Origin: Nitrososphaera sp.
Lineage (GTDB): Archaea; Thermoproteota; Nitrososphaeria; Nitrososphaerales; Nitrososphaeraceae
Direction: 5' to 3'
Length of the DNA: 64,000 nt
Assembly (NCBI RefSeq): GCF_013388945.1
Contig: NZ_JACAEH010000021.1
Span: forward strand, 1 to 64,000
The translations under genes and the position numbers were made by a program. This document shows positions 19,678 through 21,604 of the stretch, piece by piece; within the stretch, counting starts at the first letter, position 1; each line of letters opens with the position of its first letter. The notes under the pieces are model-generated. The model did no database searches. It was not told where the DNA came from and saw only the letters and a program-made list of their open reading frames with translations.

Positions 19678-20019
19678 ATGAGCGAACCGGCGCAATACAT
19701 CACGTTTGACGAGTTCATGAAGGTAAAGCTGCAGATTGGCAAGGTGACAAGCGCCGAACCCATCCCCAAGATGAAAAAGGTGTTCAAGGCGGTGGTTGAC
19801 ATCGGCACTGAAAAGCGCGAAGTCGCAGTAGGCGCGGCGCTCTGGATAAAGCCGGAGGATTTTGTGGGCAAGACCGTGGTGATATGCACTAACTTGCAGC
19901 CGCGCAAGATAGGCGACATAGAATCAAACGGGATGCTGCTTGCGGCAGACGGGCCGGAGGGAAAGCCGGTCTTTTTGACGATAGCAGAAGACGCGCCGCT
20001 TGGCGCGCCGATACACTAG
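19678..20019 (+). CDS. tRNA-binding OB-fold protein (MetRS-beta/CsaA-like)
   Basis: This 113-residue stand-alone tRNA-binding domain has FDEFMKVKLQIGKVTSAEPI, then VGAALWIKPEDFVGKTVVIC, NLQPRKIGDIESNGMLLAA and the final loop. This is the Arc1p/EMAPII-type OB fold seen at the C-terminus of MetRS and in CsaA. In archaea a separate MetRS beta subunit of this size is known; CsaA-like chaperone is the alternative. Start is ATG. It is convergent with the PAC2 gene (about 4 bases overlap). Confidence 0.85.
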   Translation: MSEPAQYITFDEFMKVKLQIGKVTSAEPIPKMKKVFKAVVDIGTEKREVAVGAALWIKPEDFVGKTVVICTNLQPRKIGDIESNGMLLAADGPEGKPVFLTIAEDAPLGAPIH

Positions 20020-20732
20020 CCTATTCCGGGCCCGTACTTGGGCTCTTTCTTTTTCTGGGCCTCTTCAAGTATCGACTCGTACTGCCTGTCAAGCGTCTTT
20101 GTGTCAAGCGGTATGCTCTCGAGCTTTGAGAACGCGGCCAGGATGCTCTTTGCTGCAAGCGGCTGGGGGACGGTAGTTTCAGAAATCTCGCCAAACAGCC
20201 CGATGGCGTCTATCCCGCGCTCTGCGGCCATGCCAAGTATCACGCCGTTGAACCAGGTGATGTTCGATATCTCCTAGCCCACGAGATCTATGCCTGCCTT
20301 TGCAAGCACCTTCTTCAATTCCGGCCTGTTCACCACGCCGCACACCCGCGGAGCGCCCGTCAGCTGGTCGCGCAGGTACCCGCCTGCGCCGTACAGCCTT
20401 GCCACCTTTCCGGCATTCTGCGCAAAGTCAAGCAGCGCGCCACACAGCGCGTACAGCTCGCCCGGGTCCTGCGGCTGCGACTCGCCGGTGAATATCATGA
20501 GCTTGCGCTCGTCGTCGTAATGGATCCTGTAAGTGTCGCTTGCGCTTTTCACGACGCCGTCGGCATACGACACCCAGGGCTTGTCGCTTGAGACAATCTC
20601 GGCCACCTGCTCGCATTTCAGGTTCTGGGCAAGAAACGACGAGACGAGGCCGCCCACCCTGCCCATGTCAGGCAACGACGCAAAGAGCGAGAAGCCGTCG
20701 CTTTTGACCTGCTTTGTGACGCTCAGCTTCAT
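20016..20732 (-). pseudogene. PAC2-family (proteasome assembly chaperone) gene with an in-frame TAG
   Basis: A normal-length PAC2 gene (about 239 codons) is interrupted by TAG at 20274-20276. Upstream, LPDMGRVGGLVSSFLAQNL, the strand core and YGAGGYLRDQL end in KAGIDLVG. Downstream, in the same frame, EISNITWFNGVILGMAAERG continues the same domain into LEEAQKKKEPKYGPGIG. ATG 20732 overlaps the dehydrogenase stop (ATGA). Both halves keep good coding character, so the stop is recent, a sequencing error, read through, or bypassed by restart at GTG 20243. Confidence 0.75.
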
Positions 20733-21604
20733 TTTGCCATCCCGTTTATTTTTGCTAAAAAGGCGCATATCGCAGTATAGTCCTGGTCTGAAAACCCGCT
20801 GTTGCTTGCCGCCCGGAACATCTGCTGGACAGTCGACGTCGCCGGGATTGCGACGCCGGTTGCCTGCGCAGTCGCGGTGGCAAGCTCCAGGTCCTTGAGC
20901 ATGTTCTTCAGGTGAAACGACGGCGCAAATTCGCCTTCGACCATCTTGGGGCCCTTTTTCTCCGACAGGCCCGTTTTGAAATACGTGGAGTTTAATATCT
21001 TGACAAAAACTGCGGGGTCGATGCCGCTGCCTCTTGCAAGCGTTATGCCTTCAGAGACCGCAGTTGCGATGAGCGCGATGTTGAGGTTTAATGCAAGTTT
21101 TACAGCGTTTGCAGAGCCGGCCTTCTCGCCTATGTAAAACACGTTCTTGCCAAGCGACTCTATCACGGCCCTTGCCTTCTCAAACGCGCCCTTGCCGCCG
21201 GCAACCATCGGCGTCAGCTCGCCTGCTTCCGCGGCTGAAGGCCCGCCCATCACAGGCATCCCGAGCATTTCTATGCCGCGCTTTTTCAGCTCCTGCGCCA
21301 GATATTCTGACTGCGCAGGCGCAATCGTGCTTGCGTCGGCGACTATTGGCCGGTTCTTCGATTCTGCAACTCCATCCGGCCCCAGCAGCACTTGCTTGGC
21401 TGCTTCAAAGTCTGTGACGACTGTTATCACGACATCGCACCAGCCGGCAAGCTCCTTGGGGCTTGCCGCAATGCGTGCAATCGTGGAAAAGGGCTCCGCC
21501 CTTTGCCTGCTCCTGTTGTAGACTGCAAGCTCGTGGCCGGCGCTTGCAAGCCTCCTTGCCATCCCCGAGCCCATCAGCCCGAGGCCAACGACGCCGACCT
21601 TCAT
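20729..21604 (-). CDS. 3-hydroxyisobutyrate/beta-hydroxyacid dehydrogenase family protein
   Basis: This 291-residue NAD(P)-dependent dehydrogenase has the Rossmann start MKVGVVGLGLMGSGMARRL, the substrate-binding ADASTIAPAQSEYLAQ, the GMPVMGGPSAAEAG catalytic segment, and the helix GSANAVKLALNLNIAL with the catalytic Lys. DLELATATAQATGVAIP is the usual C-terminal pattern. It may reduce succinic semialdehyde or glyoxylate-type substrates (GarR/GlxR-like); this is unresolved. I chose ATG 21604 over 21628 because it starts directly at the Rossmann strand. The PAC2 gene overlaps its stop. Confidence 0.88.
   Translation of the reverse strand: MKVGVVGLGLMGSGMARRLASAGHELAVYNRSRQRAEPFSTIARIAASPKELAGWCDVVITVVTDFEAAKQVLLGPDGVAESKNRPIVADASTIAPAQSEYLAQELKKRGIEMLGMPVMGGPSAAEAGELTPMVAGGKGAFEKARAVIESLGKNVFYIGEKAGSANAVKLALNLNIALIATAVSEGITLARGSGIDPAVFVKILNSTYFKTGLSEKKGPKMVEGEFAPSFHLKNMLKDLELATATAQATGVAIPATSTVQQMFRAASNSGFSDQDYTAICAFLAKINGMAK

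What the first reader, a model, noticed from the sequence alone, without database searches (positions are those of the whole stretch)
20016..20732. Normal PAC2 gene interrupted by one in-frame TAG
The two parts are in the same frame and keep the fold: KAGIDLVG, TAG, EISNITWFNGVILGMA. Together they give the normal PAC2 length, and the ATGA overlap with the upstream dehydrogenase is intact. Possibilities are a fresh nonsense mutation, a sequencing error, UAG read-through, or restart at GTG 20243. No frameshift is visible. TAG is used as an ordinary stop throughout the window, which argues against general recoding.
Basis: partly seen in the sequence, partly recalled or inferred. Interest (0 to 1): 0.62.

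Follow-up and report, generated by a model that had tools for sequence, protein, structure and literature searches.

The report
Nonsense codon from error-prone genome assembly
A conserved archaeal proteasome-related gene looks cut by a stop codon, but at least eight other conserved genes in the same draft genome, some of them very probably essential, are cut in the same way with one substitution signature, so this is most likely a wrong base in the assembly and not special biology.

Summary
On the minus strand, a full-length PAC2-family gene (ATG 20732, terminal TAG 20018-20016) carries one in-frame TAG at 20276-20274. Both halves match the PAC2 profile consecutively, the ATGA overlap with the upstream dehydrogenase gene is intact, and there is no frameshift. 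Closest relatives are uninterrupted and have Ser or Asn there.

The explanation lies outside the window. I scanned 1.08 Mb of this 1.99 Mb Nitrososphaera draft genome, and at least nine conserved genes are cut by a single in-frame stop (6 TAG, 3 TAA): PAC2, Rad50, single-copy cysteinyl-tRNA synthetase, aCPSF1, PurL, a HAD phosphatase, a pantothenate-pathway ligase, a MEDS protein and DUF6775. Two relatives examined the same way show no comparable case (p about 0.001). Eight of nine are best explained by G:C to T:A changes (about 3.8 expected, p about 0.005). The replaced residues are Ser, Glu and Gln, so no single-amino-acid recoding fits. No CUA tRNA or PylS was found.

Most likely the TAG is a substitution error, or a damaged base fixed in a low-coverage consensus. 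A genuine fresh mutation in the sequenced strain is second. UAG read-through and internal restart are unlikely.

The parts
20277..20732 (-). N-terminal part of the PAC2-family gene (152 codons, ATG at 20732)
   Evidence: Translation; PF09754 E=2.6e-15 over profile 1-136; 60-80% identical orthologues in the genus
20274..20276 (-). In-frame TAG (codon 153); Ser in the three closest relatives, mostly Asn in others
20016..20273 (-). C-terminal part of the same gene (85 codons plus terminal TAG); ends in the genus-conserved F/Y-GPGIG tail
   Evidence: PF09754 E=1.3e-10 over profile 144-213; alignment; pN
20729..21604 (-). Upstream 3-hydroxyisobutyrate-dehydrogenase-like gene, overlapping PAC2 by ATGA; intact
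   Evidence: PF03446 + PF14833; ORF ends at 20729
19678..20019 (+). Convergent gene with tRNA_bind domain; its stop overlaps the PAC2 terminal stop; intact
   Evidence: PF01588

Best explanation
The TAG is most likely a base-substitution error in this draft genome, probably a C-to-A change turning a serine codon TCG into TAG. It is one of at least nine such stops found in 1.08 Mb (rough extrapolation about 17 in the whole assembly). The nearly uniform G:C-to-T:A class is what oxidised guanine (8-oxoguanine) in library DNA gives when few reads or few template molecules support the consensus. The organism itself most likely makes ordinary full-length PAC2. Shown: the stop, the other eight stops, the spectrum, intact relatives. 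Inferred: that the wrong bases are not in the living cells, and the oxidation/low-depth cause (no reads available).
For: Nine interrupted conserved genes with flanking sequence intact on both sides: PAC2, Rad50, MEDS, HAD, CysRS, aCPSF1, DUF6775, PurL, PPS. The CysRS cut hits the Glu of the HENEIAQ motif, which is Glu in all 19 aligned relatives, in the only copy of that enzyme found in the genome. Relatives' codons: Rad50 TCG (31), HAD TCA (36), CysRS GAG and aCPSF1 GAG (43), PurL GAG (50), PPS GAA (56), MEDS GAG or GCA (31), PAC2 Ser (11), DUF6775 CAG (45). 8 of 9 fit G:C>T:A versus 0.42 expected from codon use (p=0.005; 6 of 7 for the less ambiguous ones, p=0.02). Control by the same method: 7 distinct cases in 109k aligned residues here, none in 176k of two relatives (p=0.001). 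No excess of frameshifts. The C half is not decaying. Oxidative G>T artefacts are a known class (PMC12390751).
Against: No reads were available, so error was not shown directly. The TCG precursor in PAC2 is inferred: the nearest relatives have AGC, AGT, TCC. Original codons of MEDS and PPS are uncertain because the positions vary. Accepting or dismissing the raw hits (antisense or upstream extensions) was by inspection. A contiguous 99%-complete assembly would usually have fewer substitution errors than about 3e-4 per base, the rate implied here.
Confidence: 0.74

Rival explanations
1. A genuine, recent nonsense mutation in the sequenced strain or in part of its population: PAC2 truncated to 152 aa and inactive, compensated by the other four PAC2-family genes or simply dispensable.
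For: One base change suffices; the rest of the gene is undecayed, as expected if recent; four other PAC2 genes exist in the genome; some relatives in the family lack a close copy.
Against: It would have to hold for nine conserved genes at once, including the only CysRS and the aCPSF1 gene, which is hard for a living cell. The orthologue is kept in every near-complete genome of the genus searched.
Confidence: 0.19
2. Functional UAG/UAA read-through or a suppressor tRNA: the organism makes full-length proteins from all these genes.
For: All nine genes keep coding constraint downstream of the stop; three clear cases replace Ser; TAG (6) and TAA (3) only.
Against: 39 tRNA genes found, no CTA anticodon, and the targeted pattern search hit only D-loops, one intron and a non-tRNA; no PylS above cut-off; replaced residues are Ser, Glu, Gln; TAG and TAA end 86 of 140 long ORFs; the TAG share is what codon use predicts (p=0.36) and absence of TGA is not significant (p=0.19). 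Tolerance by read-through would not favour one mutation class.
Confidence: 0.03
3. A real G:C-to-T:A mutator lineage (for example impaired 8-oxoguanine repair) that has accumulated nonsense mutations.
For: The spectrum of the nine stops.
Against: G+C of the sample (54.7%) is not lower than in two relatives (53.6% and 50.0%); very probably essential genes are hit. Repair genes were not surveyed.
Confidence: 0.03
4. Split gene: the C-terminal part is translated separately from GTG 20243.
For: A GTG is in frame 10 codons after the stop.
Against: That codon is ordinary coding sequence in relatives (GVILG or GLILG); the only GGAG lies about 25 nt upstream; no relative is split; no unusual RNA structure (z=-0.86).
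Confidence: 0.01

Closest known systems
Ordinary PAC2-family protein (Pfam PF09754; PbaA of Pyrococcus furiosus, PDB 3vr0, is the best solved relative)
   Same: Read through, the frame covers the PAC2 profile 1-213 at 106.6 bits; the N half matches 3vr0 at 9e-9 (that 3vr0 is PbaA is from my own knowledge).
   Different: One TAG inside; the C-terminus is the genus-conserved GPGIG tail, without the HbYX motif described for PbaA/PbaB (PMC3605417).
Oxidative-damage G>T / C>A sequencing artefacts (PMC12390751)
   Same: Same substitution class in 8 of 9 stops.
   Different: Seen here only in a consensus; strand asymmetry in reads, the diagnostic sign, could not be tested.
Pyrrolysine / UAG recoding in archaea (from my own knowledge)
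   Same: In-frame UAG in conserved genes.
   Different: No PylS, no CUA tRNA found, TAA also affected, TAG is a common terminator.

Membership tests
PAC2 family (PF09754) | Profile match above the gathering score over the domain | tested here: met
   106.6 bits vs cut-off 25.8, positions 1-213 of 215, reading the TAG as a residue
PbaA/PbaB proteasome chaperone or activator type of PAC2 | C-terminal HbYX motif | tested here: not met
   The protein ends ...KYGPGIG; motif described in PMC3605417
UAG recoding (Pyl or suppressor) | tRNA with CUA anticodon | tested here: not met
   None in 39 tRNA genes or in a pattern search; several expected tRNAs (e.g. Tyr) were not recovered, so the list is incomplete
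UAG recoding (Pyl) | Pyrrolysyl-tRNA synthetase | tested here: not met
   Only a 23-bit partial hit, cut-off 178
UAG recoding | Consistent inserted residue and UAG rare as a stop | tested here: not met
   Residues Ser, Glu, Gln; TAG ends 53 of 140 long ORFs
Oxidation-type sequence error | Excess of G:C>T:A changes | tested here: met
   8 of 9 vs 0.42 expected, p=0.005
Oxidation-type sequence error | Read-level strand asymmetry or minority support | not testable with these tools
   No reads available

The most novel reading that the evidence does not exclude
This Nitrososphaera strain really carries stop codons in many conserved, probably essential genes and translates them by general, low-specificity read-through of UAG and UAA in a lineage with a G:C-to-T:A mutation bias.
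Probability: 0.02. Interest if true: 0.85.

Novelty: not a real feature. Interest (0 to 1): 0.14.

Why it matters
It shows that a single-gene recoding candidate in a draft genome should first be tested against the whole assembly: one genome-wide scan turned an apparent oddity into a base-quality signature. It also warns users of this genome that roughly 17 conserved genes may look broken, and that silent missense errors are likely too, at an implied rate of a few per 10,000 bases.

Tried and rejected
UAG-specific recoding: looked possible when the first three cases were all TAG; dropped after TAA cases appeared. Ser-inserting suppressor: looked possible when three of four cases were Ser; dropped after Glu in CysRS and aCPSF1 and Gln in DUF6775. 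PylS and CUA tRNA searches: negative. RNA structure downstream of the TAG: ordinary. Most other same-frame stops in the coding scan were tandem genes, by Pfam boundaries or start codons. Comparing missense changes was not attempted genome-wide: relatives are too distant for about 1 error in 3,000 bases to show.

Full report
OBSERVATION. The gene lies on the minus strand, which the finding did not say. Translation of 20732 to 20016 gives a 238-position protein with a single internal TAG at codon 153 (20276-20274) and a terminal TAG. The two halves match PAC2 (PF09754) profile positions 1-136 and 144-213 on their own, and 1-213 when read through (106.6 bits). The PAC2 start overlaps the stop of the upstream 3-hydroxyisobutyrate-dehydrogenase-like gene as ATGA, and a convergent tRNA_bind gene overlaps its end. 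The coordinates and description given are right.

RELATIVES. The window lies in contig C15 of a 1.99 Mb, 31-contig, 99%-complete draft genome. Its nearest named relative loci are Nitrososphaera and Nitrososphaeraceae MAGs. Close orthologues occur in every near-complete genome of the genus searched, at up to 80% identity, without a stop. At the position of the TAG the three nearest have Ser (AGC, AGT, TCC), most others Asn, and the flanking residues (VG-E-I) are conserved. Among Ser codons only TCG is one base from TAG, so a C-to-A change is the simplest path; TCG itself was not seen there. The C-terminal part is as constrained as in relatives (pN 0.07-0.12 against pS near 0.6), and the window protein has no private replacement at genus-invariant sites. 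So there is no decay; the only defect is one base.

RECODING TESTS. The genome has 39 tRNA matches. Their anticodons, including intron-containing ones read by ARAGORN, Rfam alignment or by hand, are all sense. A pattern search for T33-CTA-R37 followed by a T arm hit only D-loops of ordinary tRNAs, an intron of tRNA-Ser(CGA) and a non-tRNA. Several expected tRNAs, such as Tyr, were not recovered, so absence is not proved. PylS is absent. TAG ends 53 of 140 long ORFs in a 279 kb sample.

GENOME-WIDE PATTERN. I scanned stretches of the genome for stops with coding potential in the same frame on both sides (279 kb, 679 kb,079 kb). Pfam then separated tandem genes from domains that span the stop. 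As a second, independent method I aligned ORFs of two relatives, 400 kb each of a 2.53 Mb single-contig genome (G014) and a contiguous draft (G012), against the sample. In contig coordinates the interrupted genes are:

PAC2 (C15:20274, TAG); PPS, phosphopantothenate synthetase family (C15:129233, TAA); Rad50 (C31:25734, TAG); MEDS domain protein (C31:99502, TAG); cysteinyl-tRNA synthetase (C31:309665, TAG); DUF6775 (C17:2367, TAG); HAD phosphatase (C17:8351, TAA); aCPSF1-like beta-CASP nuclease (C28:67683, TAG); PurL-like (C28:76856, TAA). The names aCPSF1, PurL and Rad50 rest partly on my recognition of motifs, with Pfam support for the first and last.

Relatives' codons at the stops: Rad50 TCG/TCT/TCC Ser; HAD TCN Ser in all 19; CysRS GAG or GAA Glu in all 19; aCPSF1 GAG Glu or Asp; PurL GAG Glu; DUF6775 CAG or CAA Gln in all 13; PPS GAA Glu in the nearest, variable elsewhere; MEDS GAG Glu or GCA Ala. 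Each can be reached by one base change: C>A for TCG/TCA, G>T for GAG/GAA, C>T for CAG. Eight of nine are G:C>T:A, against 42% expected from codon use (p=0.005; 6 of 7 for the less ambiguous ones, p=0.02). The TAG:TAA:TGA split of 6:3:0 is not unusual.

CONTROL. With the same relative-guided comparison, seven distinct interruptions were found in this genome in about 109,000 aligned residues. None of the simple nonsense kind was found in the two relatives in about 176,000 (p=0.001). Raw hits in antisense frames or upstream of starts were removed by eye in all genomes. The only control oddity is a stop inside a short insertion in a carbamoyl-phosphate-synthase-like gene of G012. Frameshift candidates are not in excess here (2, against 3 and 1).

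INTERPRETATION. A living cell is unlikely to have lost its only CysRS, aCPSF1, PurL and Rad50 together while keeping every other codon of these genes intact. Read-through would rescue them but would not explain why nearly all changes are of one chemical class or why three different residues were replaced. A base-error process with G:C>T:A bias explains all of it; 8-oxoguanine in library DNA is the known source of such changes (PMC12390751). The implied rate is about 1e-4 per specific change, roughly 3e-4 per base if spread over all changes, or about 17 nonsense errors in the assembly. That is high for deep short-read data but possible where few templates support the consensus. I could not see reads, so a population variant or a true mutation in this one gene remains open (about 0.19).

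FUNCTION OF THE INTACT GENE. A PAC2-fold protein, probably related in role to archaeal proteasome assembly or activator proteins. It lacks the HbYX tail that PbaB uses to bind the 20S proteasome and instead ends in a genus-conserved GPGIG, so that role is only a lead.

Noticed in passing
L083:5734 (G000:C31:25734, -): Rad50-like gene with an in-frame TAG where most relatives have Ser; otherwise intact.
   Followed up: yes
L174:9665 (G000:C31:309665, +): Single-copy cysteinyl-tRNA synthetase with TAG in the HENEIAQ motif; all 19 aligned relatives have Glu.
   Followed up: yes
L183:7683 (G000:C28:67683, -): aCPSF1-like beta-CASP nuclease with an in-frame TAG.
   Followed up: yes
L113:8351 and L113:2367 (G000:C17): HAD phosphatase cut by TAA at a Ser invariant in 19 relatives, and DUF6775 cut by TAG at a conserved Gln.
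   Followed up: yes
L183:16856 (G000:C28:76856, +) and L081:5233 (G000:C15:129233, -): PurL-like and PPS-like genes with a late in-frame TAA; homologous tail continues after it.
   Followed up: partly
L086:19502 (G000:C31:99502, +): MEDS domain gene with an in-frame TAG; intact in three genus relatives.
   Followed up: yes
L037 (G009:C79:3064-3336): In another draft genome of the genus the PAC2 orthologue lacks about 60 residues (50-111), apparently by an internal deletion or misassembly.
   Followed up: no
L287 (G012:C3, near 159669): A roughly 30-nt insertion with an in-frame TAG in a carbamoyl-phosphate-synthase-like gene of a relative.
   Followed up: no
L072 and L077: Introns of a Trp-like tRNA and tRNA-Ser(CGA) begin with the same GATCTAACGCA stretch after the anticodon; the Ser tRNA seems to carry a second intron.
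   Followed up: no
window 20016-20040, minus strand: The C-terminal tail F/Y-GPGIG of this PAC2 group is nearly invariant in the genus although it lies outside the Pfam domain.
   Followed up: no
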